Made by a program: the position numbers and the translations under genes. Shown here piece by piece: positions 1,155 through 62,912 of a stretch of DNA of 64,000 nt. Within the stretch, counting starts at the first letter, position 1, and the number at the start of each line of letters is the position of its first letter. Source of the DNA: Roseimaritima multifibrata (lineage in GTDB: Bacteria; Planctomycetota; Planctomycetia; Pirellulales; Pirellulaceae); contig NZ_CP036262.1 of NCBI RefSeq assembly GCF_007741495.1, forward strand, positions 6,882,001 through 6,946,000. The letters are read 5' to 3'. Below the pieces are notes generated by a model that did no database searches, was not told the origin of the DNA, and saw nothing but the letters and a program-made list of their open reading frames with translations.

Positions 1155-1178
1155 GCGGAGAAAAAGCGAGATTCTTCG

Positions 1179-2303
1179 ATGCGATCTGTCTTCACACTTT
1201 TCCTAATCACGTTCATTCCGCAGATTGCCATGTCGGCGGAAATTACTCGTGTTTGGTTAACCCATCAGACGAACGACCCTAGTAAAATTGTCGTGAACTG
1301 GATGACCGACGAACCGGGGGATTCGGTTGTTCGCTTCGGCTTGACAACGAATTACAGCGAGACGGTGAGAATTGACGAAGCGACGCTCCTGCATCACGTT
1401 GAGATTCCGCTAAAGCACCGCGACACGACCTACCATTACTCCGTTAGCACTGGAGACCAAGCGTCAAAGGACGCCGCATTCAAGTCCTACCCATCCGATG
1501 TACTGCGAGTGGCCGTGGTCGCCGACTGGCAAGGGAAGCCGGACCTTTCGGCGATCGTGAAAGAGGACGTGCATCTGCTGCTGACGGCCGGGGACAACAT
1601 CGCTCGCATTTGGCAAATGTGCGGCGAAGGGCAGAAAGACTGCGTAAAACCCTATGCAGCATTGATCGACGCCTACCCGGAACTATTCCGCACCACGCCG
1701 TTCATGCCGGCCCTGGGAAATCATGACCGAGAAATTCGACCTCGAGGGAGCAAACCGCCTGCAGAGCCCGTCTACGACGTGGACGCCACAGCCTTCCGGC
1801 GATTCTTTCAGCTTCCCGATGACGAATGGAAGTGGCACTTCGATGTGCCTGAGTTCGATCTGCGATTCGTAGCCCTTGATTTCAATCACATCTCCGACTT
1901 CGGTTCAACGTGGCAGACCTGCCATGCGTTCGACGAGAATTCAGAGCAGTTCCGCTGGTATAAAAAAGTGATGACGCCGCCCGCTCGCTTTGTCGTGACG
2001 CTCTACAACGAACGGAACGCGAGCGTCCGCAACCAAGCTCAGAAACAATGGCATGACCTATTCCGAAAAGGGACCTGCTGTATCACTGGTTTCGGATATT
2101 TCGCCGAACGAGCCGAAGTGGATGGTTTCTCTTACTACAACACTTCCCTGAGCGGGAAAGGGAATCAGTACCCCGATCCCCAGTCCACGTTTCTAGCTGG
2201 CGAAGACAGCTACCTTTTGCTGACCGTCAAACGTGGCGGAAATATGACGGTCGAGATGAAGAGCCTAACAAACACGATCCTTGATCGACAGGTTTACGAG
2301 TGA
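1179..2303 (+). CDS. purple acid phosphatase-like metallophosphoesterase, degenerate metal site
   Basis: 374 residues with a signal peptide (about 1-20), a fibronectin-III-like N-terminal domain (about 21-105) and a calcineurin-like phosphoesterase region from about 109. This is the layout of bacterial purple acid phosphatases. Motif positions can be followed: Asp116 in VVADWQG, GDN at 138-140 and GNHD at 180-183 are present. The two histidine motifs are lost: where V-x-x-H is expected there is VTLY followed by NERN (about 273-280), and where GHxH is expected there is TGFGYF (303-308). The fold is probably kept but full dinuclear metal binding is doubtful. It is therefore either a non-catalytic relative or uses other ligands. 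An intact, unrelated metallophosphoesterase lies at 5444. The start follows a TATAAT and has a good signal peptide. Confidence 0.75.
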
Positions 2304-2340
2304 CAGCGTGCTATGAACAGCGTCACCGTCAATCAACCGG

Positions 2341-2409
2341 TCCCAACCCGCTGCGTAAGCGAGGGACTAGTCCCATGCCGATGTCCCTCGCTCACGCGGC
2401 GGGTTGGGA
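2341..2409. repeat. REP-like palindrome, GCGAGGGAC family, copy 1
   Basis: Two 27-base arms (2341-2367 and 2383-2409) are inverted copies with two mismatches. Each arm ends inward in GCGAGGGAC / GTCCCTCGC and outward in TCCCAACCCG / CGGGTTGGGA. The same core recurs at 5293-5345 and 52084-52126, with a half copy near 54619. A cruciform or RNA hairpin is expected. It is non-coding; small open frames across it are artefacts. Confidence 0.85.
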
Positions 2410-2440
2410 TTCGGGCAGCCGGTGCGTCCCTGTTTGTTTT

Positions 2441-2635
2441 CGCCGGGCTCGTCCAGGTCGGTACAACAACTGGCAGCTACCTGAATGCCACCCCCACTCG
2501 ATCCTTCTCTGCCAGGTCCGAATCGCCTAGGCGATTTGGACCTGGCAGAGAACCGCATTTCGGTCGTTCAATAGGGTAGCTGCCAGTTGTGAGCCCGCCG
2601 GGGCAAGCCCGGAAACGGAACTCTTTTAGCAGCAT
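2441..2635. repeat. composite nested inverted repeat downstream of REP copy 1
   Basis: An outer inverted pair, ACAACTGGCAGCTACC at 2466-2481 and its complement at 2575-2590, encloses a 48-base palindrome at 2505-2552. The palindrome is centred on CCTAGG and perfect except one pair (2520/2537). Flanking CCGGGCTCG (2443-2451) and CAAGCCCGG (2604-2612) form a further imperfect pair. A related element with the same CCGGGCTTG, CAACTGGCAGCTACC and CAAGCCCGG order lies at 52168-52265, also directly after a REP-like palindrome. It looks like a MITE-like or REP-associated mobile unit; no transposase is present. Confidence 0.75.
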
Positions 2636-2685
2636 CCGGGCCCGGAGGGTCGACGATGAATAATCTGGACTAGGCGGAGCACGCT

Positions 2686-4110
2686 CTAAGATGTTGCTTC
2701 CAGCAGGACCTCGCTTGTTCCTTTTGGCAAGTCAAAACATGCGACAAGTTTTTGTTCATCGGCGATCCATGTTCCGGCATCCAAACTCGATCGCTGGGGC
2801 GCTTCACGCAGCATCATGCGTTCACTTCCCTGCTGGATACAGACAGGTCCCGCACCACCCTCAATCTGCAACGTGTAGCGTTCTGTGGCAAACGGTGCGT
2901 TGAGCGTTAAACGGTTGCCAGCACGGCTGATCTCCGTCAGCTGCTTGGCGGCCCAGTAGCGGGCAATTTCGCTTACCTTCATCCAGATCGTGTCGTCGGC
3001 GAATCGCGATGCCAACGATTCAACGACTCGCTGAAAGGAACGAAATCCCTCTTCGCTGCCGTTGCTGTACATCCCCGGCCAATGACAGAGCATAACCGCC
3101 GGTTGCCGCCGCTCGATCAGTTCGACCATTCGGCCACTGGTCGCAGTGGCATTGCAATAACGATCCGGTTCGGAGAGGGAATCGCCTTGCCAACCACCAA
3201 ACCAATCGCCCGTTCCAGCCGGAACGTTTACTGTTAACCGGACGTCTTCTGTCCCCACGCCGCGCAAATGCTCCAGCTTCGGTTCGGTGCTCTCATCGCC
3301 AAAGTGAACGTACTTAAAATAGTGCGGCAGTTCGACGCCATACACATCACGGACTGCCTGATCGACGGCGATCGGCAATTCGCTTTTCATCGAATTACCA
3401 AATCCTCCGGGGGTGGTGATTCCTTCGCAAGGCAGATCACAGTTTTTTAAGATCCGAAGGGCATAGGCTAGGTAGGCGGCCAATTCGTCCACGCTTTTCT
3501 TTTCCTGCGGATACGAATTCTCCATGGTTGCCGCGTTGATTTTTTCCATCGGCCTGCCCGTCTTCAGATCGATCACTCGTGTGTGCGTGATCATCTCGGG
3601 ATGGATGTCCCAGTTAGGGAGCATTAATTCGCGGACAAGTTTCAAGCTGGACTGCAAGTCGGCGTGCGACCAACCGGGCAGTTCACGATCCATCCAGCCA
3701 ACGCAGGCAGGATTGGGGACGATGCTGTACTTGCCTTTCACCCCATGATCGGAACACCATTCACCAAACTGGCGGACAAAGTTATCGGGGATCTCACGCG
3801 GCCATGACTTCCACGGTTTTTGATACTCGGCACGACCTGGAAAAGCGGTCGCAAACTGCGGAGTACAAAAATGTCCCATGTTCACCAGGCACGTCGAATC
3901 ATCAATAATGAACGACAGCGGCACTCGGTCCTGTGGCATCAGTACCTTGACGCCCGCTGGCCGGGTCGGCAGGCGAGCAGGCTCAGACGTTTCAGCCACC
4001 GCTAAACGAGACATCCCCATCCCCGCAACGGTCGTTGCGGCGGCGCCCCAAGCCGACGCACGAAGAAACTTGCGCCGATCCTGATTGATTAATACACGGT
4101 GCTGATTCAC
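2686..4110 (-). CDS. Tat-exported polysaccharide-deacetylase-like protein
   Basis: 474 residues beginning with a twin-arginine leader (QDRRKFLRASAWGAAATT), so export in folded form is expected. The mature part starts with LSFIIDDSTCLVN, where the paired aspartates resemble the first metal motif of NodB-like polysaccharide deacetylases. Further conserved-looking segments are HPEMITHTR (around 170), EGITTPGGFG (around 240) and VMLCHWPGMYSNG (around 350), compatible with a (beta/alpha)-barrel hydrolase. The C-terminal ~80 residues look like a small beta domain. The substrate is unknown. It stands alone on the minus strand between repeats and a divergent hypothetical gene. The assignment to the deacetylase superfamily is an inference from the motif pattern; a planctomycete-specific hypothetical family is the alternative. 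Confidence 0.6.
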   Translation of the reverse strand: MNQHRVLINQDRRKFLRASAWGAAATTVAGMGMSRLAVAETSEPARLPTRPAGVKVLMPQDRVPLSFIIDDSTCLVNMGHFCTPQFATAFPGRAEYQKPWKSWPREIPDNFVRQFGEWCSDHGVKGKYSIVPNPACVGWMDRELPGWSHADLQSSLKLVRELMLPNWDIHPEMITHTRVIDLKTGRPMEKINAATMENSYPQEKKSVDELAAYLAYALRILKNCDLPCEGITTPGGFGNSMKSELPIAVDQAVRDVYGVELPHYFKYVHFGDESTEPKLEHLRGVGTEDVRLTVNVPAGTGDWFGGWQGDSLSEPDRYCNATATSGRMVELIERRQPAVMLCHWPGMYSNGSEEGFRSFQRVVESLASRFADDTIWMKVSEIARYWAAKQLTEISRAGNRLTLNAPFATERYTLQIEGGAGPVCIQQGSERMMLREAPQRSSLDAGTWIADEQKLVACFDLPKGTSEVLLEATS

Positions 4111-4399: not shown

Positions 4400-5275
4400 A
4401 TGGCCTTTCGTTCGCGTCAACCATTATTTGGTAAACAATCACGGCGACCGTCTCTCTCGTTCGTTTTTTTAGTAACGCTGTTAATCGGCTCAACAAACGC
4501 AGCGCCCAAAGAAAACGAAGCGGAAAGCTGGCGTAGGAACCAATTAAAGGACATTGCCCAGAAGATTGAGAAGTCCGATTCGGATGATGAGCGCCTGGAG
4601 TACGGTGCGAGACAAACTTGGCTTCAACGTTGGAAACCAGGGCAAATGCCTCTTGCCCCAACAGACTCACCAATCGAATCGGAACTGGTCGAGGAGCCGT
4701 TGCTTGAACAGTTGAAAAAGCCGAACGGAGTTTCCGCAGAGGTTTGGCAACAGATGATTTCGTCTCAAACGGATTTGCTTGCGATGGATACCGTCGATGA
4801 TCGCAAGGAAAATTTGCGCATCGTCATCAGGTTGGCAGGGCAGCTGGAAAAACGACTGTCTGACCAGCTTCCCTCGAACCTGCAGCAGCTCCCTACCCCA
4901 ACCGCTTGGGTCCTCGCCTACACTCGTTACCGACTTGGGCGAGCCTTGGCGTATCGGGAATTACCAAGCGTCCGAGAACGATGGCCGATTTCAAATCCGA
5001 TGCGTTATGAAGAACAACTTTCAGCCGCCTATGAAAGATTGATCGCCCAAACGAATGAAGTTCGGCCCGAGTTCATTTTGCTTGAGGATCGGATGTTAAG
5101 GCGAGCGGGTAAAAAAGGGCGAGCGTTAGAATTGCTTGAGGCAAATCGAAGATCGATTGAACCGAAGTGGTACCTCAAGAAGAGGCGTGACATGTTGCAG
5201 GAACTTGGCTGGGAACCACCCTACAAAGAAGCGGCCAAACTCTACACAGAAGCAGGCTACAGCACCGATCCGTGA
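4400..5275 (+). CDS. exported hypothetical protein, helical
   Basis: 291 residues. A basic N terminus and a hydrophobic segment (about 20-34, FVFLVTLLIGSTNAA) form a signal peptide. The mature protein is charged, mostly helical in appearance, and has TPR-like spacing of Leu/Ala/Tyr residues in its second half (LAYTRYRLGRALAYREL, then YEERLI-type and LLEDRMLRRAGKKGRALELL segments). No catalytic motif was seen. It is not a family I recognise. It is followed closely by a REP-like palindrome and then by the metallophosphoesterase at 5444. Confidence 0.7.
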   Translation: MAFRSRQPLFGKQSRRPSLSFVFLVTLLIGSTNAAPKENEAESWRRNQLKDIAQKIEKSDSDDERLEYGARQTWLQRWKPGQMPLAPTDSPIESELVEEPLLEQLKKPNGVSAEVWQQMISSQTDLLAMDTVDDRKENLRIVIRLAGQLEKRLSDQLPSNLQQLPTPTAWVLAYTRYRLGRALAYRELPSVRERWPISNPMRYEEQLSAAYERLIAQTNEVRPEFILLEDRMLRRAGKKGRALELLEANRRSIEPKWYLKKRRDMLQELGWEPPYKEAAKLYTEAGYSTDP

Positions 5276-5292
5276 CCAACCAATCTTAACAT

Positions 5293-5345
5293 CGCTGCGT
5301 GAGCGAGGGACCGTGCACAAGCCGAGGTCCCTCGCTCACGCGGCG
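5293..5345. repeat. REP-like palindrome, GCGAGGGAC family, copy 2
   Basis: Inverted 19-base arms at 5293-5311 and 5327-5345 (CGCTGCGTGAGCGAGGGAC type, one mismatch) with a 15-base spacer. Same family as 2341-2409. It lies 18 bases past the stop at 5275 and may also act as a transcript end. Confidence 0.8.
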
Positions 5346-5443
5346 GGCTGGGATTACGGGCGTCAATTGGGGGCATGCGGCTGGTGCGGTGGTTATGATA
5401 TTCTTTCGAAGAAAGTCTCGCCGGCCCCTTAGGAGAAACCAAC

Positions 5444-6355
5444 ATGCCGATACACCTTGCCGCTTTAACTCGTCGCCGTGTCCTGCAAGCTGCGGGTGCG
5501 AGCATTCTGCTGTACGGCCGCCACGCTGCGGCGGCAAAGGCCGCTGAAGTCGATCCCGACTTGATCTATTTGCTGAATGATACGCACATCGGCGAAAAAC
5601 ACCCAACGGATTCCCCGGTCCCTAGTCACCTCCGTCAGGTTGTCACCGAATTAGTTCAAAGGCCAGTAAAGCCAGCGTGCGTGCTGATCAATGGCGACCT
5701 GGCTTTGAAAGACGGACAGCATGGTGACTATCGGCATTTCGCCCAACTGATTCGCCCGCTGCAAGAAGCCGGTATCGACACCCATCTAACTCTGGGCAAT
5801 CACGATAACCGCGAAGCGTTCTACGAAGTAATGAAGACGCAACGCCCGGATCAGCCTCTGGTCGAGTCACGACATATTTCGGTCGTCGAAACAGCTCATG
5901 CCAATTTCTTTCTGCTCGACTCGTTGCAAAAGACAATGGTCACCCAGGGGACTATCGGCAAGCAACAACTTCAGTGGCTGACAGCGGCACTGGATGCTTC
6001 TCAAACCAAGCCTGCAATTATTGTGACCCATCACAATCCTCGGCTGGGTGGAGATCCAGTGCATTTCCCGGGAGGGCTGGTTGATTCCCAAGAACTATGG
6101 AACGTCGTCGGGCCACGCAAGTGGGTCAAAGCGTACATTCATGGGCATATCCATGATCGCACCTACGCACAGCATCAAGGAATTCACATTCTCAACATGC
6201 CTGCCACATCGTACGTTGGCAATCCAACCCAATCGACGACCGGCTGGACAACGGCTCGACTATCACCCGATGGTATCGCCCTCACCACGCACACGACCGA
6301 TGCGGCGCACCCCTGGAACGATGAAATGAAAACGCTGACTTGGCGATCCGCATAG
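5444..6355 (+). CDS. Tat-exported calcineurin-like metallophosphoesterase
   Basis: 303 residues with a twin-arginine leader (LTRRRVLQAAGAS). All five metal-binding motifs are present: D46-T-H48, GD at 84-85, GNHD at 118-121, H196-H197 (THHNP) and GHIH at 234-237. This predicts an active dinuclear metal phosphoesterase in the periplasm, acting on a phosphomonoester or diester; the substrate cannot be told. The start is supported by AGGAG at 5431-5435, eight bases before the ATG. The next gene begins 17 bases after the stop, so the two are probably co-transcribed. Confidence 0.88.
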   Translation: MPIHLAALTRRRVLQAAGASILLYGRHAAAAKAAEVDPDLIYLLNDTHIGEKHPTDSPVPSHLRQVVTELVQRPVKPACVLINGDLALKDGQHGDYRHFAQLIRPLQEAGIDTHLTLGNHDNREAFYEVMKTQRPDQPLVESRHISVVETAHANFFLLDSLQKTMVTQGTIGKQQLQWLTAALDASQTKPAIIVTHHNPRLGGDPVHFPGGLVDSQELWNVVGPRKWVKAYIHGHIHDRTYAQHQGIHILNMPATSYVGNPTQSTTGWTTARLSPDGIALTTHTTDAAHPWNDEMKTLTWRSA

Positions 6356-6372
6356 ATAAAAGACCAAAAGAA

Positions 6373-7893
6373 ATGAGACCGTTCATCAATCACCTACTGG
6401 TCGTGGCAGCGACACTGCTGCCCGTAGCCGTCAGTTATGCAGCCGAAATGCGAGTTGCCGGAATCTTCGCAGATCATATGGTCCTGCAATGTGAACAACC
6501 CGTTCGGATTTGGGGATGGGCAGACGAAGGCGATAGGGTGACGGTTACATTTGCCGACCAAACCGCAGAGGCATCAGCCGATGAGCAGGGAGCGTGGTCG
6601 GTCACTCTTCAGCCTCTTGCAGTCAGCGTCCAAGGGAGGCCGCTGCGTGTTGATAGCGGTCGGCAGTCCGTTGTGATTGACGACATCCTGGTGGGTGAAG
6701 TCTGGCACGCGAGCGGTCAGTCAAACATGGCGATGACCGTCGGCGCAGTGTCGCGTGAACTGGACGCCGCTCAAGCTGACATCGTCGCCGCGAACCTGCC
6801 GGCAATCCGATTCAGCCGGATCCATGCAGCCGAAAGCTCGGAACCGCTGAGCGATTTGGGCCAGCAGGCAACCTGGACGGTCTGCACTCCGGAAACGGTT
6901 TCCCGTTTCTCGGCAGTCGCTTTTTATTTTGCCCAGCGTCTGCATGCGGAGCTTGGCGTACCGATTGGCATTATCGATTCCTCGCGGGGCGGAACGCCTA
7001 TCGAACCCTTTATCCCCAAAACGGCTTTCGATGCGCATCCAACACTAAAACGAGAACTGGAACTAGCGAACCAAGGCGATCTGGACGGAATCTGGAAGCT
7101 TCCGGGCGGCGTACGTGCACGGGACACCAACTGGCTGCCGGGCCGCCTGTTCCATTCTCGAATCGCCCCAATCCGTCTCTTCACCGTACGCGGAGCGATC
7201 TGGTACCAAGGGGAATCGAACTGCGGCGTTCAGGAAGACCCACGCGACTACCAGCACAAGATGCGAGCGTTGATCAAGGGTTGGCGTCAAGCCTTGGAAA
7301 ACGAGGAACTACCGGTTTACTTTGTGCAGCTTCCCGGTAGTGGCGCCGGAGACGGCTGGCCCTACCTCCGTGAACAGCAGCGACTGGCGACCGATCTCCC
7401 AAACTCAGGGATGGTCGTTACCGTCGACATTGATGGGGCGGCAATTCACCCGCCAAACAAAATCGACGTGGGGCAACGTCTCGCAAGCTGGGCATTAGCA
7501 AAGGACTACGGCCATAAGATCGCTTTCAGCGGCCCAATGTTTGATCGTCAAGAGATCGTCGGAGACAGAGCGGTTCTACACTTCCATCATGCCGAGAGTG
7601 GCCTGATGGTGGCAGACAAAGAAGGGCTCGCAGCCCCGCAAGAAACGCCCGACTCCGAACTTGCAAACTTCGAAATGATTGACAAGTCGGGCATGTGGCA
7701 GCCAGCCAAGGCCAAGATCGAGGGGAAGACCATTGTGGTTACCAGTGCGAATGTCTCCTCCCCGCTGGCGGTACGGTACGCCTACTCGGTCACACCGGAC
7801 AACTGCAATCTCTATAACCGCAATGGACTGCCCGCATCTCCATTCTGCACACGACCGGACACATTGACCTACGACCCGAAGCTGCCGAAATGA
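6373..7893 (+). CDS. SASA-family sialate O-acetylesterase-like esterase
   Basis: 506 residues from the ATG at 6373. An upstream in-frame ATG at 6340 overlaps the preceding gene and would put charged residues before the signal peptide, so 6373 is preferred. A signal peptide spans about 1-24. The catalytic block GQSNM is at 115-119 (Ser117), SRGGTPIEPF is at about 204-213, and the C-terminal D-x-D...H block (VDIDGAAIHP, His359) completes an SGNH/SASA hydrolase triad. The N-terminal ~100 residues form a beta-rich domain typical of these esterases. Family members remove O-acetyl groups from sialic acids or from plant and algal polysaccharides. In a marine planctomycete an acetylated polysaccharide is the likelier target (inference). 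Confidence 0.88.
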   Translation: MRPFINHLLVVAATLLPVAVSYAAEMRVAGIFADHMVLQCEQPVRIWGWADEGDRVTVTFADQTAEASADEQGAWSVTLQPLAVSVQGRPLRVDSGRQSVVIDDILVGEVWHASGQSNMAMTVGAVSRELDAAQADIVAANLPAIRFSRIHAAESSEPLSDLGQQATWTVCTPETVSRFSAVAFYFAQRLHAELGVPIGIIDSSRGGTPIEPFIPKTAFDAHPTLKRELELANQGDLDGIWKLPGGVRARDTNWLPGRLFHSRIAPIRLFTVRGAIWYQGESNCGVQEDPRDYQHKMRALIKGWRQALENEELPVYFVQLPGSGAGDGWPYLREQQRLATDLPNSGMVVTVDIDGAAIHPPNKIDVGQRLASWALAKDYGHKIAFSGPMFDRQEIVGDRAVLHFHHAESGLMVADKEGLAAPQETPDSELANFEMIDKSGMWQPAKAKIEGKTIVVTSANVSSPLAVRYAYSVTPDNCNLYNRNGLPASPFCTRPDTLTYDPKLPK

Positions 7894-53179: not shown

Positions 53180-54349
53180 TTAAGGTTTGCAGTGGGCTAA
53201 AGCCATCAACGCAAAACTGGTCGCTAAATTTTTGTCGTTTTCAAACCAGCGTTGATTTTCATTGCTCCAGGATCCGTCTTCGTTTTGGCGTGAGGCGAGT
53301 TCCTTGATCAGATCGGCCTTCCAGTCATGCTTGTTACCGTCGGCATCGACCATTTCACTCAAACCCGCAGCGTTTAAACCTGCAGCAAACGTGTGGTAGT
53401 AGTAATACAGACCGGCCGACCCTAAGCCTGGATTTTGTTCCACGCTGTAATGCTCCTTAATCCACTGCAATGCAGCCACGACTCGAGGGTCATCTTTCGA
53501 AAGCCCGGCAAAGATCATGCTCTTCAGGCCGGTATATCCCATCGACCCATAACTTCGCAGGCCGCCATTGGGTGTGTAACGTTCTTCCGAGGTGCTTGGG
53601 TCGATCACCGTGGTAGGGATCTCGTAGTAAAATCCACCATCATCGACCTTGGCTGCGAACAGCGTATCGTTGTGCGAGCTGTCCAGATTCTGGCACCGTG
53701 AAACGAAAGCTAAAGCCCGTTGGATCGCAGGATCACTTGGCCCCGATTCGGTCGCTCGGAGAGCTTCGATCATGTAGCCGGTGTTGGAAAGATCAGGACG
53801 CCCTGCTCCGCCATATCCGACGCCTCCGTACCATGGATCATCGGGCGATCGATTACCCTCGCCGTACTGCAGGCCGGTGACAAACGCTTTGGCTTGTTTC
53901 AGCAATTCGTTGTACTGCCCCGATTTATTGGCCTCCGCAAAACAGACCATCGCCACACAGGTTTCATAATTCTTTAAGCGTCCATTGCCGTAGATCCCAC
54001 CGTCGGGCTTCGCAAAACCTTCCAGTGCCTTCAAACCTTCGGCGACCATCGGTTCGGTCAACGCTTGACCGTTTCTCAGCGCGGAAGTCACAGCCAGCGC
54101 CGTAACCCCAGGGCCAACTTGATCGGAGAAAGTGCCTGAATCGGCTTGCCCTTCTTGTGCCAAAAATGCCAGCCCCTTCTGGACAACCTGAAGACGCAAT
54201 TTTTCACTTTCCGACACCGCTGCTTTTTCGGGAGAAGTTTTTTTGGCGGTTCCAGAATCTTGAGCCCAAACGCTACTGACCAGCACCCCCGAAACTAGGG
54301 AGGTAACAAAAATCCGTCGCGCGTGGCGGAATTTCCATCGCTGATTCAT
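53180..54349 (-). CDS. exported prenyltransferase/squalene-oxidase repeat protein
   Basis: 389 residues from the ATG at 54347-54349, with GGAG before it; the upstream open frame to 54613 runs into repeat family B. Signal peptide about 1-30. The mature protein is made of alpha-alpha barrel repeats of the terpene cyclase/prenyltransferase type: GVTALAVTSALRNGQALT, FAKPDGGIYGNGRLKNYETC, GRPDLSNTGYMIEAL and RQNEDGSWSNENQRWFEND. The DxDD motif of hopene cyclases was not seen and the protein is too short to be one, so it is more likely a non-catalytic or unknown barrel protein in the periplasm. Confidence 0.8.
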   Translation of the reverse strand: MNQRWKFRHARRIFVTSLVSGVLVSSVWAQDSGTAKKTSPEKAAVSESEKLRLQVVQKGLAFLAQEGQADSGTFSDQVGPGVTALAVTSALRNGQALTEPMVAEGLKALEGFAKPDGGIYGNGRLKNYETCVAMVCFAEANKSGQYNELLKQAKAFVTGLQYGEGNRSPDDPWYGGVGYGGAGRPDLSNTGYMIEALRATESGPSDPAIQRALAFVSRCQNLDSSHNDTLFAAKVDDGGFYYEIPTTVIDPSTSEERYTPNGGLRSYGSMGYTGLKSMIFAGLSKDDPRVVAALQWIKEHYSVEQNPGLGSAGLYYYYHTFAAGLNAAGLSEMVDADGNKHDWKADLIKELASRQNEDGSWSNENQRWFENDKNLATSFALMALAHCKP

Positions 54350-54548
54350 AAGGGTTTCTCCAATTTTTGAATACTCAAGACGTAAAGTGGCGATCCACCA
54401 AAGACCATCACACTGAAGTAGCAAAAAGAGGGCCAGTAAGCCTGGCGGCCGATCAAAGCGGTGCCTTGGAACCAGATCCGTGGGAGCGTGCGATGGATCA
54501 GTTGCCGGTAAAGCCGCAGACAGCCGAGCCCCGAATCCGCGGCTCAAG

Positions 54549-54650
54549 CGGCTTGTTGATTTAATCGAAACCGGAGAAAGAATAGCGTTCTTTCGCGGAG
54601 CGAAAGGCGACATTCTGCGATCCCTCGCTTACGCAGCGGGCTGGGATTTT
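54549..54650 (+). repeat. dispersed repeat family B copy plus half REP
   Basis: CGGCTTGTTGATTTAATCGA at 54549, GTTCTTTCGCGGAGCGAAAG at 54587, GGCGACA to 54612, then TCCCTCGCTTACGCAGCGGG (about 54620-54639), one arm of the REP-like palindrome. It shows that families B and REP are physically linked, as also at 52050-52126. Confidence 0.75.
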
Positions 54651-55593: not shown

Positions 55594-57783
55594 ATGAAAT
55601 CCTTGACGACCCTGCCCTGCTCTACCCGGAGCTTTCTTCCCAGCTGGGGAACGGGCCTTCTACTGTTAGCCGTTGCGTGCGGCGGAAACTGGCTTGGGAA
55701 TCCCGCTCAGGGAGCCGGCATGCTGGTGGCCGAAGGAGGCGCAGGGGGGGTGCTGGAAATCAAAAACCAAGACGTGCGTGTCACGATTAATAACTCCATT
55801 GCCGTGACTCAGATCGACCAAACCTTCGTGAACACTGAAAACCGGATCGTCGAAGCACTCTACACGTTCCCTGTTCCTCGCGGAGCCAGCGTGTCGAATT
55901 TCAGCATGTGGATCAACGGCAAAGAAATGATCGGCGAAGTGGTCGAAAAGGAACGTGCCCGCAAAATCTACAACAGCTACAAACGCGTCAAACGTGACCC
56001 CGGTCTGCTGGAACAAGTCGACTTTAAACAATTTGAAATGCGAATTTTCCCGATCCTTGCCGGTGCCGAACAACGGGTACGAATCGAATACTACCAAGAA
56101 CTGCAATTGGACCATGACTGGGGAACCTACGTGTATCCGCTCGCCACCCAGACCGCCGGCCGCCCCATCGACACGAAAGTCCAGGGACGGTTTTCGATGA
56201 ACCTGGAAGTGCTAAGCGAAGTTCCGATTCAAGAACTGCGTAGCGAATCACACACCGATGATTTCGTTGTCGCAAAACATACCGACAAATACGCTCAAGC
56301 CAGCATGGAATTGACCGAAGGCGATCTGTCTCGCGACATTGTGCTGGCTTTCCAAACCAAGCGTCCACGGACCGGGATCGACGTCATCACCAGTCAACCC
56401 AAAGGGGAAGCCGGCTACTTCATGATGACCGTGACTCCTGGCGAAGACCTTAGCAGCACGATGGAAGCGATGGATTATGTCTTCTTATTGGACATCAGCG
56501 GATCGATGGCTCGCGACGAAAAACTCGCTCTCAGCCGCCGCAGCGTCGCTGCTTTCATCGAATCGCTCAGCCCCGAGGATCGGTTTGAATGCCTGGCCTT
56601 TAACCTGCAACCGACTCCGCTATTCCAAGGACTGCAAACAGCCAATCAAGAGAACTTAGACAAAGCTTCCCAGTTCTTCGCTCAGCAACGGGCACGCGGC
56701 GGCACGGTTTTGGCACCTGCATTGCAAGCGGCCTACGGCTATCGCGATTCCGACCGGCCTCTCAATGTGGTTCTACTAAGCGATGGAATGACCGAACCAG
56801 GCGAGCAAGCCGAATTACTGAAACTGATTCAATCACGCCCTGATGGAGTACGCGTCTTCTGCGTCGGAGTTGGGAACGAAGTCAATCGGCCGCTGTTGAA
56901 TCAACTTGCCACTCAAGCGGGCGGTTTAGCCGCGTTCGTTTCGACCGAAGACAGCTTTCGTCGTCAAGCTCATCTGATGCGTCAAAAACTGATTCGACCA
57001 GCGATCGCCAATCTATCCGTCAACTTCTCGGACTCGCAGATTCATGACGTCGAACCGCAGCAGCTTGGCAATCTGTTTTATGGAACTCCGCTGCGGCTGC
57101 TGGGCCGATTCAAATCCGGAGGACCGGTTGAAGTAATGATGAAAGGCCAGATCCAAGGGGCTCCCTGGGAACAGACCGTCACCGTCACCCTGCCGACCAC
57201 AGCCGAAAAGGACAATAGCCCGATCGAACGGATGTGGGCGTTTCGCAATGTATCACGTCTACTGGACGAAGAACGGAGCGGTGTCGCGGCCCACAAAGAC
57301 GAGATCGTTCGGCTGTGCGAGGGATATTCGATTGTTTCGCCTTACGCATCGATGCTGGTTCTTGAAAACGACCAGGAATACAAACGCTGGAAAATCGAAC
57401 AACGCAATGCCACTCGCATCGAGCGGGATCGAGCTTCACGTCAGCGGGTAGCCAACCAACTGGCGGCTTTGCGGGATAGCAACCGGTCCTTCGTGACGGC
57501 ATCCGACGACAAGCCTTCGGCGACCAAAACGGCTCCGGCAAACCCATCCAACACGGCTTCACCTAAAACAGACGCACCAGCCGCCTCCCCTGCTCAACCC
57601 GCCAGCCAACCGTCGCCCAGCAACGTCGACCTTAACATCCAACGTCCAGAAAGCCGTAGTGGTGGCGGCGGAGCTATCGATCCAATCACCGCGATGCTGG
57701 CGATCTCTTCGGCGGGTGCAGCCGCTCTGGCCGGTCGGCGTCGGAAGCGGAACGAAAAAGAGGCTGCCAATAGCAAGGACTGA
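55594..57783 (+). CDS. VIT/VWA protein with Gly-hydrophobic-Arg C-terminal tail
   Basis: 729 residues from the ATG at 55594 with GGAG eight bases upstream. Signal peptide about 1-42. A VIT domain (about 50-175) has TQIDQTFVNTENRIVEALYT, FPVPRGASVSNF and EKERARKIYNSYK. The vWA domain starts at FLLDISGSMARDEK (MIDAS D300-x-S-G-S304). A Pro/Ala/Ser-rich linker (about 640-688) leads to SGGGG (690-693), a 21-residue hydrophobic segment ending in Gly and RRRKR at 715-719, with ten residues after. That three-part tail resembles the GlyGly-CTERM sorting signal cut by rhombosortase, and a rhombosortase-like gene is next. In marine proteobacteria, related VIT/VWA proteins are targets of dedicated sortases. 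Cell-surface attachment is inferred. Confidence 0.9.
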   Translation: MKSLTTLPCSTRSFLPSWGTGLLLLAVACGGNWLGNPAQGAGMLVAEGGAGGVLEIKNQDVRVTINNSIAVTQIDQTFVNTENRIVEALYTFPVPRGASVSNFSMWINGKEMIGEVVEKERARKIYNSYKRVKRDPGLLEQVDFKQFEMRIFPILAGAEQRVRIEYYQELQLDHDWGTYVYPLATQTAGRPIDTKVQGRFSMNLEVLSEVPIQELRSESHTDDFVVAKHTDKYAQASMELTEGDLSRDIVLAFQTKRPRTGIDVITSQPKGEAGYFMMTVTPGEDLSSTMEAMDYVFLLDISGSMARDEKLALSRRSVAAFIESLSPEDRFECLAFNLQPTPLFQGLQTANQENLDKASQFFAQQRARGGTVLAPALQAAYGYRDSDRPLNVVLLSDGMTEPGEQAELLKLIQSRPDGVRVFCVGVGNEVNRPLLNQLATQAGGLAAFVSTEDSFRRQAHLMRQKLIRPAIANLSVNFSDSQIHDVEPQQLGNLFYGTPLRLLGRFKSGGPVEVMMKGQIQGAPWEQTVTVTLPTTAEKDNSPIERMWAFRNVSRLLDEERSGVAAHKDEIVRLCEGYSIVSPYASMLVLENDQEYKRWKIEQRNATRIERDRASRQRVANQLAALRDSNRSFVTASDDKPSATKTAPANPSNTASPKTDAPAASPAQPASQPSPSNVDLNIQRPESRSGGGGAIDPITAMLAISSAGAAALAGRRRKRNEKEAANSKD

Positions 57784-57804
57784 TCGCATCCAATCACAAA
57801 CGCC

Positions 57805-57827
57805 AAGCCCTCCTCAACGGAGGGCTT
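57805..57827 (+). terminator. hairpin after the VIT/VWA gene
   Basis: AAGCCCTCC (57805-57813) and GGAGGGCTT (57819-57827) form a GC-rich nine-base stem with a five-base loop. No T-run. It could terminate the VIT/VWA transcript or weaken read-through into the next gene. Confidence 0.65.
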
Positions 57828-57958
57828 GTAAGGTAGTTGGTCCTACCGACGGCTCGACAAATCGCAACGACTTTCGGATGACTTTGGTTCGACCCTGCTT
57901 CACAGTGGCGGGTGACAGGACCATTCCTAAAAGAGCAATTAACACACCTGGAACCATC

Positions 57959-58672
57959 ATGTTTCGCCGCTACCCCATAACCATTTTGATCGTTGCTCTA
58001 TCGGTTTTCAGTGCCGCATCGCCAGCGATCACAGAATGGTTTCAGCTTGATTTCAGCAAAGCTGTCGAAGGCGAATGGTGGCGATGGTTCAGCGGCCACG
58101 TGACTCACTTTGATCTTTCCCATTTGATCTGGGATTGCGGAATGTTCGCCGTGCTGTCAGTGATTTGCGAATCGAGATATCGCAAATGGTACCCAGCGAT
58201 CCTGCTAGCCAGCCTGCCCCTTATTTCGGCGGGGATTGTCATTAGCTGTCCGGAAATCGCTTCTTATCGAGGCCTTTCAGGGATCGACACGATGCTCTTT
58301 ACCTGGCTTGGAATCGCCGCGATCAAAAACAACCTGCGAAGGGGAGATCGAATTTTCGCCACTGCCGCAGCGGTGGGAGTGGCGTGCATGCTGGGCAAAC
58401 TGGCCTACGAAGGGATTACAGGAGAGATCCTGTTTGTGAATAGCGACAGCTTTCAACCGTTGGTCGAAGCTCACATAGCCGGCGCAATCTGCGGTGCAGC
58501 CGCCGCCTGCTTTGATTGGCAAAAAACACCAAAGCCGCTTCTTATTTTCAGCAAGGCTATGCAAATAAGTCGTGAACGACTTTGCCGCCTTCCGGGCCGG
58601 TTAACCGATGTGTCCGCCCGTCATGGAAATAATCAAGGCTCTCATGCTTCAGCCCCAGCAGATGCAGAATAG
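57959..58672 (+). CDS. rhombosortase-like rhomboid protease
   Basis: 237 residues from the ATG at 57959; the frame is open further upstream but lacks a signal there. The rhomboid core is complete: [19 protein letters not shown] (His47, His50, His55) in the L1/TM2 region, [10 protein letters not shown] with the catalytic GLSG (Ser107), and [10 protein letters not shown] with the catalytic His172. The short six-helix form and the W..f.GH..H...H pattern fit rhombosortase, which processes GlyGly-CTERM tails, better than GlpG. The last ~35 residues lie antisense to the convergent DUF1501 gene (116-base overlap). It begins 175 bases after the VIT/VWA gene, its likely substrate. Confidence 0.8.
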
Positions 58673-59885
58673 TGGCATGAAGGTCGCGGAAGTGAACTTT
58701 TCCTTCCACAGCCTGCGACCCCGTGTCATTCGTTTTGCCATGGACGTATCCGCCCTTAACGCCACCTCCGGCCAGCCAGTAAGTGAACCCTCGGTAGTTA
58801 TGTCCCGTTTGGTCTTTGCCTTCGGGAACCAAGCCCGGCCGCCCGAACTCGCCGCCCCAGACGACAAGCGTATCATCCAGCAGTCCACGCGTCGCCAAAT
58901 CGTCCAGCAAGGCTGCGATCGGGGCATCCACCGTTTCACAGTTGGCCTTCAAATCACGTCGATGGTTTGTGTGCTGATCCCAGCCGCCATGATTCAATTC
59001 AATAAAGCGAACTCCGGCTTCCGCGAAGCGTCGTGCCAACAGGCATTGACGCCCAAAATCGGTTGGGCGACAGGTTCCCACCGAAAGTTTCTTACCAACT
59101 CGATAGCGTTCCAACGTGGCGGCTGACTCGTTGGAAAGATCCAACAATTCAGGAGCACTTGCCTGCATCCGAAAGGCCAACTCCATCGATTCGATCACAC
59201 CTTCCAAGCGAGCATCATCCTTTCGCCCAACCAAGTGCTGCCGATTTAACGATTGCAAAAAATCAACTTGCTGGCGTTTCGCAGCCAATGGCAAATGATC
59301 ACTTTTCACATTTTGAATGACCGCTTTTGACATGTCCTCCCCATTGGTGCCGATCGGGGTTCCGGCAAACGCCGTCGGCAAAAACTCACTCGAGTAAACC
59401 GACGGCTTGGCGGCATTCAGGCTGATGAATGCGGGCAGGTTTTCATTTTCGGTTCCCAGGCCGTAGGTAATCCACGATCCCATGCTTGGACGTTTCCTCA
59501 GTTTTTCACCCGTATGCATCTGCAAGAAAGACTGAGCATGATTTCCTGTATCGGCGTGCATCCCGTTGATCACACACAACCGATCCACATGCTTGGCGGT
59601 TTCGGGCATCAGTTCGGAAACCTGGATACCACTTTCGCCATGCTTCTGAAATGCAAACCCCGACCCAGGGTGCTTTTTGTTGGTCGTTTGAGGCTTGTAA
59701 TCAAACGTATCCATCTGAGCGGGACCACCGCTCATGCAAAGAAAAATAACGCGTTTGGCTCGAGCGGGAACGAAGTCGGCCGTATCCGTCGCCGCTGAAG
59801 CGGACCGCTGTTGCAGCGATTGCAGTGCAAGGTAGCCAAACCCACATGAAGTGGACTGCAGCAGTTGACGTCGTGAGGCGAACAT
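58557..59885 (-). CDS. DUF1501 protein, Tat-exported
   Basis: 442 residues with a leader [18 protein letters not shown]1501 hallmarks: [20 protein letters not shown], a Gly-rich [54 protein letters not shown] and the C-terminal [20 protein letters not shown]. This is the sulfatase-like branch that is usually paired with DUF1549/DUF1553 cytochromes; that partner lies 30 bases upstream at 59916-62912. The C terminus overlaps the convergent rhombosortase-like gene. Confidence 0.92.
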
Positions 59886-59915: not shown

Positions 59916-62912
59916 TTAATCGACGAAACGGAATTCATTCGATGCGAACAACGCCTGTGCCAAACCGGCCCAGCCCTGCTGCTGGGCAGAAGATTCCGAA
60001 TGCCCCGGAACGGTTAGCATTTCGATCGTTTTTTGGACATATTGAACCGTTTGCTCCCGTTCAACGGGTGATGGTTCTCGTAATAGGATGCGGCGGAAGA
60101 ACGTTTCGACCCGCTGATCTGGCGACGACGTTTGGTCCTGCAATGATCGTTCGGCGAACCGCTGCGACTGCTCGACCACCAAGCGATTATTCAGCAGGAA
60201 CAAGTCCTGTGTGGGGAGCGTCGTTTCTTCTCGCTGACCAACCACTTCAACGCCAGTCGGAAGATCAAAGGCGGCCAGTTCCGGTGGCGGAGCATGCCGC
60301 AAGCGACAGAGATACAGACTGCGATGCGCACTGGGGAAATGGTGGTTCGTAGCATTCCCCGGAGGCCAATTGATTAGTGCGACCACTTTCTCGATGGCCG
60401 ACCCGCTAGCGGGTCGATGGTCTAGATTCTCGCAGACCGCCAAGATTCCATCACGGAGCGATTCGGCATCCAGACGCTTGCGAGAATGCCTGGCGAACCA
60501 TTGATTGTTTGGATCTAACGCATTCTGCGAACGGGGCGAGGAACTATCAAGCTGATAGGTTCGACTGAGAACCAGCGCGCGGATCAGGCGTTTGATCGAC
60601 CAATTTCCTGCAACAAATCGCTCTGCCAAGTGATCTAGCAATTCAGGATGCGAAGGCTTGGCTCCGTAAACTCCAAAGTCGTTGGGCGTTTGCACGATCC
60701 CATGCCCAAATAGATGCATCCAGATTCGGTTGACCATCACGCGGGCAGTCTGCGGATGGCGAGGGTCGGTTAACCACTTCGCCAATTCCCTTCGGCCGCT
60801 TCCTTCGCCTGGGCTCTCAAAATGAAAACTCGCGTCCGCGGTTTTGTCGGTGAAAACCTGATCGTAGACGGTCAAGACTCCGCGCGGGACAACCGGCCCT
60901 TTCTTGTTGGATTCTCCACCGATGCGAATCGCACAATCTACCGGTTTTGCCTTGTCGCGAACCCCCATCGCCCAACCGAGCGTTGCAACGCCCTTGGGCT
61001 GCCCACTGGCCGTGTGCAACTGAAGAGCTTGTTCTTCGGTCAGTGCTCGCTCGAACAGAGCGATTTCGGCCAGTTGACCATCCAATGGTGCAAAGTCGTC
61101 CGTCCGACTTGCGAAGTTGTATTCGAGGGAATCTTTGAATGTGGATGGCAACGAATCATCGATCTCCAACCGACCATTCAAATACAATTTGACGGACGCT
61201 TCGTTTCGCACCAAAGCGACATGGTTCCAAGTATTCGGAGCAATCACCGTTGTCCCAACAACGGACTTCTTATCACCATTTCCACTGAAGACAAACAACT
61301 TGCCAGCACGTGCAAGGTTGTACTTACCACCAATTCCAATGTGATCTCCCGGCACCGCTTTATTCCCCCAAGGCCCCCGAGAAAAGAGGTAGGCGGTGAT
61401 CGGACGCACTTTGTTTCCGATGTGGTTCTTAAACCAGAAACTAACGGAGTAATCATTCGCAGCTGCGGAAACCTTGCCACGGAGCTGCGTCTCCTTGACC
61501 TCGACCCAAGCTTTGGGCGAGAACTTCACCTTGGAATCGAACTGGAGTGTTTTTGGCGGTTCGTTGCCGACAACATGCAGGTCGGGGGCCAGCTGATCGA
61601 TTGCTTGCGAGTAGCCTTCTGGAAAGGCAGCCGGCGTCGCCGCCGGAGGGACGGGATCATCGGTCCCACCCGCTGCGGAACGCAGTGGATGCAGATCGGT
61701 CGGAGGAGCGGTTAATTTTTCGTCGCCAGCCCGCCCGTAAAGCGATTCGGTACTGGTAAAGATGCCCGCCAAAGCGTAATAGTCGCTTGTTGGGATCGGA
61801 TCATGTTTATGGTCATGACATCGGGCACATGCGATGCTTAACCCCATAATCCCCGAGCCCACAACATTGATCTGATCGTCGACCACATCCATTGCGAAGT
61901 TCGCGTTCATCGCGACCGCAGGCTTACTGCCGATCGCCAGGAATCCTGTCGCAATCAATTGCCGATGCCGCTGATCGGCCGTTTCTGCGGGCAATAGATC
62001 GCCAGCGATCTGTTCGGTCAAAAATTGATCGTAGGGCGTATCACGATTCAGTGCATCGACGACGTAATCCCGGTACCGCCAAGCGTGCGGGAAGGTCGGA
62101 TTGCGTCCCAGCCCGTCGTCTCCGTTCGATTCGCCAAAGCGGGCGACATCCAACCAGTGCTGTCCCCATCGCTCTCCGAACTGAGGAAGGTCCAACAAAG
62201 AATCGACCAATTTTTCGATCGCCAACTGCCGATTGGTTTGGATGTCCGCCGCAAAGGATTCGATCTGCGCCAACGTAGGCGGCAATCCGATCAGGTCGTG
62301 ATACAAACGACGCGCCAACACGGCGGGAGGTGCGTCCGAGGTCGGTTGCAGCTTGGCCGTTTCTATCCTGGACAGAATAAACGCATCGAGGGGATCCAAA
62401 GGCCAATCCGCCTGGACCACCGAGGGGACCGGAGGATCCTGTCGCGGCATCATCGACCACAAATTCGTCTCAGCGAGCGAATCGGGTTTGATCGCTGCCG
62501 GTTTGGCGATGCGTGGATCGATCGCTCCTGCGGCGACCCAACTGGCAAAATCGTTGGCAATTTGAGGTGGCAGCGGTTCTGCTGGCGGCATCTCAATATG
62601 CTCATACTTCAATGCTTGAACGAGCAGACTGCGTTGGGCGTCCCCCGCAACTAAAGCGGGTCCCGATTGCCCACCTGCCAAGATGCCTTCGCGTGAATCA
62701 AGCAGCAGATTTCCGCCCACGTCATCGGATTCACTGGAATGACATTCATAGCAGTGGTTCACCAGGACAGGACGAATCTTCTTCTCGAAAAAAGCAACCT
62801 CTTTCGCGGCTGGGTCAGCACCAAGCGATACCGCCGGCACCATTAAGATCGCCAGCACCATCAAGACGGCAGCGACGCAGAGAAGGGAATGCAGCGATTG
62901 AAGCTTGCACAT
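59916..62912 (-). CDS. PSCyt1/DUF1549/LamG/DUF1553 protein
   Basis: 998 residues, signal peptide about 1-31. Domain order: planctomycete cytochrome domain with CYECH (54-58) and EMPPAEPLP; DUF1549 (WPLDPLDAFILSRIE, RRLYHDLIGLPPT, RWGQHWLDVARF, then CARCHDHKHDP at about 356-366); a LamG/concanavalin-like insert of about 180 residues (YSVSFWFKNHIGNKVRPITA, NHVALVRNEASVKLYLNGRL); and DUF1553 (RRELAKWLTDPRHPQTARVM, RNRIWMHLFG-type and LSRTYQLDSS). Two heme-binding motifs suggest electron transfer; the LamG insert suggests carbohydrate or protein contact. First gene of a two-gene operon with a DUF1501 protein. Confidence 0.93.
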   Translation of the reverse strand: MCKLQSLHSLLCVAAVLMVLAILMVPAVSLGADPAAKEVAFFEKKIRPVLVNHCYECHSSESDDVGGNLLLDSREGILAGGQSGPALVAGDAQRSLLVQALKYEHIEMPPAEPLPPQIANDFASWVAAGAIDPRIAKPAAIKPDSLAETNLWSMMPRQDPPVPSVVQADWPLDPLDAFILSRIETAKLQPTSDAPPAVLARRLYHDLIGLPPTLAQIESFAADIQTNRQLAIEKLVDSLLDLPQFGERWGQHWLDVARFGESNGDDGLGRNPTFPHAWRYRDYVVDALNRDTPYDQFLTEQIAGDLLPAETADQRHRQLIATGFLAIGSKPAVAMNANFAMDVVDDQINVVGSGIMGLSIACARCHDHKHDPIPTSDYYALAGIFTSTESLYGRAGDEKLTAPPTDLHPLRSAAGGTDDPVPPAATPAAFPEGYSQAIDQLAPDLHVVGNEPPKTLQFDSKVKFSPKAWVEVKETQLRGKVSAAANDYSVSFWFKNHIGNKVRPITAYLFSRGPWGNKAVPGDHIGIGGKYNLARAGKLFVFSGNGDKKSVVGTTVIAPNTWNHVALVRNEASVKLYLNGRLEIDDSLPSTFKDSLEYNFASRTDDFAPLDGQLAEIALFERALTEEQALQLHTASGQPKGVATLGWAMGVRDKAKPVDCAIRIGGESNKKGPVVPRGVLTVYDQVFTDKTADASFHFESPGEGSGRRELAKWLTDPRHPQTARVMVNRIWMHLFGHGIVQTPNDFGVYGAKPSHPELLDHLAERFVAGNWSIKRLIRALVLSRTYQLDSSSPRSQNALDPNNQWFARHSRKRLDAESLRDGILAVCENLDHRPASGSAIEKVVALINWPPGNATNHHFPSAHRSLYLCRLRHAPPPELAAFDLPTGVEVVGQREETTLPTQDLFLLNNRLVVEQSQRFAERSLQDQTSSPDQRVETFFRRILLREPSPVEREQTVQYVQKTIEMLTVPGHSESSAQQQGWAGLAQALFASNEFRFVD

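What the first reader, a model, noticed from the sequence alone, without database searches (positions are those of the whole stretch)
55594..58672. Candidate dedicated sorting pair: VIT/VWA protein with GGGG-hydrophobic-RRRKR tail next to a rhombosortase-like protease
The VIT/VWA protein ends in SGGGG (690-693), 21 mainly hydrophobic residues and RRRKR (715-719). This is the tripartite form of GlyGly-CTERM signals, whose known processing enzyme is rhombosortase. The next gene, 175 bases on, has the rhomboid core GLSG (Ser107) and His172 plus a W.WF.GH..H...H block typical of rhombosortases. VIT/VWA proteins in marine proteobacteria are served by dedicated sortases, so a rhomboid serving one in a planctomycete would be a parallel solution. 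Caveats: a hairpin separates the genes and ten residues follow the basic cluster.
Basis: partly seen in the sequence, partly recalled or inferred. Interest (0 to 1): 0.78.

Follow-up and report, generated by a model that had tools for sequence, protein, structure and literature searches.

The report
Dedicated rhombosortase for a surface protein
Two neighbouring genes in a planctomycete encode a probable surface protein with a removable membrane tail and the membrane protease that most likely cuts that tail, and this two-gene set recurs in several bacterial phyla, with the protease's active-site motif matching the kind of protein it sits next to.

Summary
The VIT/VWA protein (55594-57783) ends SGGGG-21 residues-RRRKR; the next gene (57959-58672) is a rhombosortase: 115 bits against TIGR03902 (cut-off 84), GlpG models far below cut-off. 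The pair behaves as a dedicated system. The tail has one strong hit in each of 11 genomes, on this protein. In 10 of 10 related genomes with the enzyme, a VIT/VWA gene lies just upstream. Of 157 distinct rhombosortase-like ORFs from Planctomycetota, Verrucomicrobiota and others, those with Ser-Gly-x-Asp-[Ser/Thr/Cys] have a VIT/VWA neighbour in 94 of the 94 that could be judged (9 more end at contig edges); none of the 33 judged to lack that neighbour has this motif. The motif differs from the published SGMLH; the tail is not matched by the GlyGly-CTERM model TIGR03501. The concept is not new: Haft and Varghese (2011) list an adjacent pair in Rhodopirellula baltica and vault-like proteins with GlyGly-CTERM tails. 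New here, as far as I could search: breadth, one-to-one pairing, enzyme-motif/target correspondence and two natural partner swaps. The correspondence is clade-level, with few independent origins. Cleavage is inferred, not shown.

The parts
55594..57783 (+). VIT/VWA protein (P0001, 729 aa), inferred substrate
   Evidence: Pfam VIT residues 57-166, VWA_3 residues 296-448; ITIH4 homology residues 60-596
55594..55716 (+). probable Sec signal peptide, residues 1-41 (...AQGA|GMLVAEGG)
   Evidence: read from sequence; several orthologues show the same ..A|G[LM]L[VI]A[DE]GG junction; no signal-peptide program was available
57661..57672 (+). GGGG signature, residues 690-693; predicted cleavage between G693 and A694
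   Evidence: site inferred by alignment with VesB SGG|SIGW
57673..57735 (+). AIDP plus hydrophobic segment, residues 694-714
   Evidence: G-x-G-A-[ILF]-[DE]-P in 23 of 23 tails that I chose for alignment A1, GGGA in 22 of 23
57736..57750 (+). basic cluster RRRKR, residues 715-719
57804..57828 (+). intergenic stem-loop (10-bp stem), no T-run after it
57959..58672 (+). rhombosortase (P0002, 237 aa), inferred sorting protease
   Evidence: TIGR03902 115.1 bits, cut-off 84; AlphaFold2 model pLDDT 88.8; all 31 PDB matches at E <=0.001 are GlpG
58277..58291 (+). catalytic Ser107 followed by Gly-Ile-Asp110-Thr111: the D[STC] class motif
58472..58474 (+). catalytic His172 in AHxxGxxxG
   Evidence: His in 113 of 113 VIT-paired enzymes

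Best explanation
A dedicated, one-substrate protein-sorting cassette. The VIT/VWA protein is exported through Sec and held in the inner membrane by its C-terminal tail, with the basic cluster in the cytoplasm. The neighbouring rhombosortase recognises the GGG-A-[ILF]-[DE]-P + transmembrane + Arg tail and cuts, most likely between Gly693 and Ala694. As reported for VesB in Vibrio cholerae, the new C-terminus is then probably joined to an ethanolamine-containing lipid and the protein is displayed on the outer surface. Shown here: presence, family, conservation, exclusivity of the tail, adjacency, correspondence between enzyme class and neighbour family. Inferred: topology, cleavage, cut site, lipid transfer, route across the outer membrane.
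For: Enzyme over the rhombosortase cut-off, GlpG fold. Of 60 genomes searched (own included) 11 have the enzyme at E <=1e-5; in the 10 others a VIT/VWA ORF lies upstream on the same strand, 4-573 bp by ORF ends, and no other window neighbour (47-64 kb) has a homologue in the fetched flanks except DUF1501/DUF1553 genes at L020. VIT orthologues at E <1e-200 occur in 10 of the same 60 genomes, all among those 11; the 11th, G012, has a divergent VIT/VWA neighbour (24%). Five VIT paralogues of about 30% identity have no such tail and no rhombosortase in the fetched flanks (5 of 5). Tail HMM: one strong hit in 11 of 11 genomes. In 392 Planctomycetota genomes it matched 21 at E <=1e-4; the 17 at E <=4e-7 all lie in the 51 genomes with a TIGR03902 match at E <=1e-15 (the 14 control genomes gave no such TIGR03902 match). 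Of 157 distinct enzymes 113 have a VIT/VWA neighbour, 33 do not, 11 are at contig edges; D[STC] is in 94 of 113 and 0 of 33; counting only loci with 2.3 kb or more upstream, 86 of 86 D[STC] enzymes have it. In 110 pairs (first-possible starts) the genes overlap by 4 bases in 22 and lie within 200 bp, or overlap, in 99. Precedent: Gadwal 2018, Roberts 2024.
Against: No proteomic or biochemical data. TIGR03501 does not hit the tail; the window tail reaches 15.5 bits against TIGR03867 (cut-off 19.7), although relative L017 passes it. The enzyme lacks the His said to be nearly universal in rhombosortases. In V. cholerae VesB, Ala at P1' (S384A) almost abolishes activity, yet Ala is the rule at that position here, so the cut site or specificity may differ. 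In the window a hairpin and 175 bp separate the genes. The motif-target link is clade-level: 6 changes of motif and 3 of neighbour on the tree, only 2 independent contrasts on supported branches. Only 17 of the 51 enzyme genomes gave a strong tail hit, partly because the tail model covers one tail class and at most 19 candidates per genome were scored. In one search candidates were capped at 150 in 7 of 11 genomes. Enzyme presence is sporadic (11 of 60).
Confidence: 0.82

Rival explanations
1. The rhomboid cuts the tail but does not anchor the protein: cleavage simply releases the VIT/VWA protein from the membrane (shedding).
For: V. cholerae GlpG cleavage of VesB yields soluble secreted protein (abstract); I saw no test of anchoring chemistry in a planctomycete in what I read.
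Against: The studied rhombosortase RssP leaves VesB surface-bound with a glycerophosphoethanolamine-containing group (passages), and the enzyme here is in that family.
Confidence: 0.1
2. The tail is an ordinary stop-transfer anchor and the rhomboid acts on other membrane proteins; adjacency is historical.
For: Gly-rich linker + TM + Arg is a common anchor architecture; in the window a hairpin separates the genes.
Against: One strong tail hit per genome in 11 of 11; VIT/VWA neighbour for 94 of 94 judged D[STC] enzymes; tail class differs with enzyme class on similar bodies.
Confidence: 0.05
3. Housekeeping GlpG-type rhomboid.
For: Same fold as GlpG; weak GlpG model scores.
Against: 115 bits rhombosortase against 25.9 and 19.7 bits for the GlpG models; only one of five TIGR03902-matching places in the genome passes the cut-off, so others are free to be GlpG.
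Confidence: 0.01
4. ITIH-like self-processing: animal inter-alpha-trypsin heavy chains, also VIT/VWA proteins, are cut at an Asp-Pro bond and esterified to glycan (recalled, not looked up); the Asp-Pro in this tail might be cut the same way.
For: Homology to ITIH4 over residues 60-596; Asp or Glu at the third and Pro at the fourth position after the glycines in most D-class tails.
Against: The Rhodopirellula lineage (12 of 12) and the His-class pairs (9 of 9 scored) have Gly there; the Asp-Pro lies outside the region aligned with ITIH4.
Confidence: 0.02

Closest known systems
Rhombosortase / GlyGly-CTERM (Haft and Varghese 2011, PMC3237569), including the adjacent pair of Rhodopirellula baltica SH 1
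   Same: TIGR03902 enzyme over cut-off; Gly motif + TM + Arg tail near the C-terminus of a probably exported protein; target gene next to enzyme gene; vault-type targets already shown in their Figure 3C (legend read).
   Different: Motif SGID-T here instead of SGMLH; tail G-x-G-A-[ILF]-[DE]-P, not detected by TIGR03501; 15 residues after the hydrophobic segment (Haft: zero to five past the TM helix). The Rhodopirellula lineage seen here carries a different VIT/VWA body (about 25% identical) and mostly GGGPIGP tails.
Vibrio cholerae RssP and VesB (Gadwal 2018; Roberts 2024)
   Same: Rhombosortase, Gly-Gly before the cut, TM and basic residues.
   Different: Six GlyGly-CTERM proteins there (VesB plus five, abstract), one tail per genome in the 11 genomes tested here; VesB has Ser at P1' and hardly tolerates Ala, while Ala is at P1' in 80 of 82 D-class tails outside the Rhodopirellula lineage.
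Marine proteobacterial sortase and its VIT/VWA target (TIGR03784 / TIGR03788)
   Same: Dedicated sorting enzyme beside a VIT/VWA protein; two Rhodopirellula targets score 533 bits against TIGR03788 (cut-off 551.65), the window protein 242.
   Different: Enzyme is a rhomboid, not a sortase; tail is Gly-rich, not LPXTG.
Rhombotarget lipoprotein (TIGR04179)
   Same: Neighbour of a rhombosortase; 4 of 4 tested proteins pass the cut-off.
   Different: Unrelated target; its enzymes have other motifs and none is D[STC].
MprA protease tail, TIGR03867 (GlyGly-CTERM form)
   Same: The relative L017 matches over cut-off (tail alone 32.4 bits, whole protein 24.1, cut-off 19.7).
   Different: Different protein family; the window's own tail stays below cut-off (15.5 bits).

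Membership tests
Rhombosortase (TIGR03902) | Score over curated cut-off | tested here: met
   115.1 bits against 84
Rhombosortase (TIGR03902) | Catalytic Ser and His, AHxxGxxxG, WRxxS/T | tested here: met
   Ser107, His172, [14 protein letters not shown]; motifs as given in PMC3237569 section 17
Rhombosortase (TIGR03902) | His in place of GlpG Tyr205 (SGMLH), reported in virtually all members | tested here: not met
   Thr111 in the window; His in 10 of 113 VIT-paired and 0 of 33 other enzymes. So I file it under the family by its curated model, as a class without this signature residue
Rhombosortase (TIGR03902) | Cleaves a C-terminal tripartite tail | not testable with these tools
   no biochemical data
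GlyGly-CTERM (TIGR03501) | Match to the model | tested here: not met
   not listed for the whole protein at E <=1 or the tail alone at E <=10 (HMMER filters drop most weak matches); own-genome search found two other places, not this tail
GlyGly-CTERM (TIGR03501) | Tripartite layout: Gly motif, TM, basic cluster near the C-terminus | tested here: met
   seen in the relatives
GlyGly-CTERM (TIGR03501) | Zero to five residues past the TM helix (PMC3237569 section 17) | tested here: not met
   15 in the window. A related count, residues after the first basic run: median 7, at most 5 in 45 of 124 VIT tails scored, loci not deduplicated
GlpG | Match to TIGR04239 / NF008155 | tested here: not met
   25.9 and 19.7 bits against cut-offs 250 and 335
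Marine proteobacterial sortase target (TIGR03788) | Score over cut-off and LPXTG tail | tested here: not met
   242 bits against 551.65; no LPXTG in the sequence

The most novel reading that the evidence does not exclude
Rhombosortases carry a readable specificity code just after the catalytic serine. Asp-[Ser/Thr/Cys] at +3/+4 marks enzymes dedicated to VIT/VWA proteins, mostly with GGG-A-x-[DE]-P tails; Ala-His marks those with GPVGP tails; other motifs go with the rhombotarget lipoprotein or a metalloprotease with GGGAPS tails. The D class would be a separate specificity class that accepts Ala at P1', a residue V. cholerae RssP hardly tolerates, and enzyme and tail would be exchanged together in evolution.
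Probability: 0.38. Interest if true: 0.72.

Novelty: new variant of a known kind. Interest (0 to 1): 0.55.

Why it matters
How a rhomboid protease picks its substrate is a long-standing question, usually confused by many substrates and no clear motif. Here one enzyme appears to serve one protein, enzyme and tail can be read from adjacent genes, and bodies and enzymes have been exchanged in a few lineages. That gives a ready panel for testing which residues set specificity. It also adds to the view of Haft and Varghese that VIT/VWA proteins recurrently acquire sorting enzymes of unrelated chemistry, and points to a probable surface protein worth looking for in planctomycetes.

Tried and rejected
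Rejected: GlpG identity. Rejected as a strict rule: my idea that Asp in the enzyme goes with Asp in the tail. The Rhodopirellula lineage has the Asp enzyme but mostly GGGPIGP tails, and the 9 VIT-paired enzymes of neither D nor His class also have P1' Ala in 7 of 9 and P3' Asp or Glu in 7 of 9. Because that last count tells against the code, its odds were lowered from 0.40 to 0.38 on re-check. Weakened: partial Mantel tests over 98 pairs gave tail-enzyme given body 0.433 (0 of 2000 permutations) against tail-body given enzyme 0.128 (24 of 2000), but inside the D class without the Rhodopirellula lineage the tail follows the body (0.403, 0 of 1000) and not the enzyme (0.046, 281 of 1000). So the coupling lies between classes and rests on few events. 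Independent-pairs tests were too small: 2 pairs on supported branches in each. VIT and enzyme trees share 27 of 94 splits (null maximum 1 in 200), which shared species history alone could give. Asp-Pro self-cleavage as in ITIH was considered and set low. The plasmid collection held one weak relative, in Shewanella. Gammaproteobacterial genomes could not be sampled as an outgroup.

Rows dropped and limits: of the 157 enzymes, 11 at contig edges without a VIT/VWA ORF were left out of the neighbour counts, while 8 D-class loci with under 2.3 kb upstream but a visible VIT/VWA ORF were kept. Two of the 33 enzymes without the neighbour have Asp at +3 but Leu at +4 and are not counted as D[STC]. Enzyme ORFs had to reach E <1e-9 against my own HMM. 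For the tree 1 of 157 was dropped and 156 thinned to 146. One search used 97 pairs plus the window. In one search the tail had to show Gly, then a non-Gly residue, then [ILVFM]; one His-class locus (L332) gave none. The motif caller returned no motif for some of its 110 pairs; one search replaced it. 80 loci were fetched by the pattern YRGLSG[LI]D[TS], so they are biased to the D motif though not to the neighbour; without them the table is D/VIT 37, other/VIT 19, D/none 0, other/none 33 (not deduplicated). One search scored at most 19 candidates per genome, so its absences are weak.
Full report
What is there. The window lies in a 7.2 Mb single-contig genome. A relative labelled same genus (G001) has a contig of the same length, 31,091 bases, as the named Roseimaritima sediminicola locus L172, with the same pair and tail, so the genus is probably Roseimaritima (inference). 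Two plus-strand genes stand 175 bp apart: a 729-aa VIT/VWA protein (55594-57783) and a 237-aa rhomboid (57959-58672). The coordinates and residue numbers in the finding check out.

Family of each part. P0002 scores 115.1 bits against TIGR03902 rhombosortase (cut-off 84) and far under the cut-offs of two GlpG models. Of five places in the genome that match TIGR03902 at E <=10, it alone passes the cut-off; the 14 control genomes all match at that loose E-value but none passes. An AlphaFold2 model from 55 sequences has mean pLDDT 88.8, and all 31 solved structures matched at E <=0.001 are GlpG. P0001 has VIT and VWA domains and aligns with ITIH4 over residues 60-596. Its best NCBIfam match is TIGR03788, the marine proteobacterial sortase target, at 242 bits, under the cut-off of 551.65.

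The tail. SGGGG-AIDPITAMLAISSAGAAALAG-RRRKR-10 residues. In 23 tails that I chose for alignment A1 (the window's included), G-x-G-A-[ILF]-[DE]-P is in all 23 and GGGA in 22. A model of them finds one strong hit in each of 11 genomes (E 2.8e-16 to 6.4e-10), each at the VIT/VWA gene; the next best over all 11 is E 0.005 and covers positions 11-37 (candidates capped at 150 in 7 of 11 genomes). TIGR03501 does not list the window tail.

Co-conservation. Of 60 genomes searched (own included) 11 have the enzyme. In the other 10 a VIT/VWA ORF precedes it on the same strand, and no other window neighbour has a homologue in the fetched flanks, except DUF1501/DUF1553 genes at L020. VIT/VWA orthologues (E <1e-200) were found in 10 of the same 60, all with the enzyme; the eleventh enzyme genome has a divergent VIT/VWA neighbour. 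Five VIT paralogues have no such tail (5 of 5). In 392 Planctomycetota genomes TIGR03902 matched in 51 at E <=1e-15 and in 31 over cut-off. The tail matched in 21 at E <=1e-4; the 17 best (E <=4e-7) all lie in the 51; of the four weaker ones G203 and G237 are not in the 51, and in G240 and G380 the match is on another contig than the enzyme. Verrucomicrobiota: 26 of 288 genomes over cut-off; Desulfobacterota: 6 of 297; these phylum names are inferred from the record titles of the loci used as centres.

Motif and target. From these searches and 80 named loci I collected 157 distinct enzymes. With Asp-[Ser/Thr/Cys] at +3/+4 after the serine: 94 with a VIT/VWA ORF just upstream, 0 without, 9 at contig edges. 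Without that motif: 19 with, 33 without, 2 at edges. With 2.3 kb or more upstream, the D count is 86 of 86. Leaving out the pattern-selected loci: D 37 with and 0 without, others 19 with and 33 without (Fisher p 3e-11, which ignores kinship). Of the 33, 15 have a relative of the rhombotarget lipoprotein in the fetched locus, adjacent to the enzyme by coordinates; 10 have a metalloprotease-family gene there, of which two (L305, L309) lie on the opposite strand and two (L301) are two enzymes sharing one neighbourhood; 8 have neither. TIGR04179 itself was tested on 4 lipoproteins and passed in all 4; the two metalloproteases tested matched metalloprotease models only below cut-off. The published signature His is present in 10 of 113 VIT-paired enzymes.

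Positions around the expected cut. With VesB SGG|SIGW as guide, D-class tails outside the Rhodopirellula lineage have P1' Ala in 80 of 82, P3' Asp or Glu in 78 of 82, P4' Pro in 71 of 82. The Rhodopirellula lineage has P1' Pro in 11 of 12 and P3' Gly in 12 of 12. His-class tails have P1' Pro in 7 of 9 scored (of 10) and P3' Gly in 9 of 9. The 9 tails of other enzymes have P1' Ala in 7 and P3' Asp or Glu in 7, so P1' Ala and P3' acid are not exclusive to the D motif. In the VesB table S384A is printed as '>1' percent activity, evidently meaning below 1.

Two natural swaps. In seven Rhodopirellula-lineage loci compared, the enzyme is 51-61% identical to that of L018 (own genus), but the VIT/VWA body is only 25-27% identical (68-81% between the window protein and five close relatives compared) and in the two tested resembles the sortase target TIGR03788 (533 bits). 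Conversely L100 and L098 keep a body 49-50% identical to the window's but have an enzyme of another lineage (about 24%) and GPVGP or GPVNP tails, as in Verrucomicrobiota and Desulfobacterota pairs. On the body tree the Ala-His enzyme needs 4 changes; 5 of 6 such enzymes have a GPV[GN]P tail against 1 of 91 others, and that one, L098, groups with the Ala-His enzymes. Independent contrasts are too few for a test, and within the D class the tail follows the body.

Mechanism. Sec export, tail in the inner membrane, cut by the neighbour, probable transfer of the new C-terminal Gly to an ethanolamine lipid, surface display. The last steps rest on V. cholerae VesB/RssP. The genome has six secretin matches, five of them strong, so a type II-like exit is possible, but I did not identify a type II system.

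What was known. Haft and Varghese 2011 (abstract, sections 8, 10, 12, 14, 15, 17 and passages read) defined the system, listed R. baltica with one target beside its rhombosortase, and showed vault-type proteins with GlyGly-CTERM, LPXTG or PEP-CTERM tails. I did not read the R. baltica genes; R. rubra and R. europaea have the VIT/VWA-rhombosortase pair, so the listed target is very probably this kind of protein (inference). Of the others I saw: Gadwal 2018, passages; Myxosortase 2025, passages; Roberts 2024, abstract and sections 6-8; Roberts 2026, abstract. In the open-access library 'rhombosortase' occurs in 21 papers and together with 'planctomycet' in one. Further searches (and, of whose 33 papers 15 were listed) showed no paper on the phylum-wide pair or the D motif in their listings. 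Most subscription papers are not held; Haft 2024 on myxosortases was seen only as a reference.

Verdict. An expected kind of system, well supported, in a variant with its own enzyme and tail signatures. The motif-target correspondence and the swaps are the part a specialist would want to test.

Noticed in passing
58557-58672: The 3' end of the rhombosortase gene (116 bases) overlaps, on the opposite strand, the 3' end of a DUF1501 gene (58557-59885, PF07394 E 1.4e-130), which is followed by a DUF1553/DUF1549/planctomycete cytochrome gene (59916-62912).
   Followed up: partly
L301 (G515, 5067-6379): A Verrucomicrobiota genome has two rhombosortases side by side (motifs SGVATG and SAVDLA) near two metalloprotease-like genes with GGGGGAPS tails.
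   Followed up: partly
G577, G543, G621, G633, G535, G530, G607, G725, G515: Nine Verrucomicrobiota genomes have two or three rhombosortase places over cut-off, in several of the fetched cases with different neighbour families.
   Followed up: partly
L185, L216: Loci from bins labelled Nealsonbacteria and Paceibacterota carry a planctomycete-like pair; probably misbinned contigs.
   Followed up: no
L105 (G377, 1-3604): A 962-aa upstream ORF ends in a Gly run, PVDPFLVVVLAGAAAARR and some further residues, beside a rhomboid with motif SGVLYG; my VIT model does not match it.
   Followed up: no
G000:C1:3175775-3175822: A TIGR03501 match just over cut-off (16.2 bits, E 0.24) in the own genome, in a 139-aa open frame; likely chance.
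   Followed up: no
53180-54613 (-): Protein with a squalene-hopene-cyclase-like C-terminal domain (PF13243 E 7e-11), upstream of the pair on the other strand.
   Followed up: no
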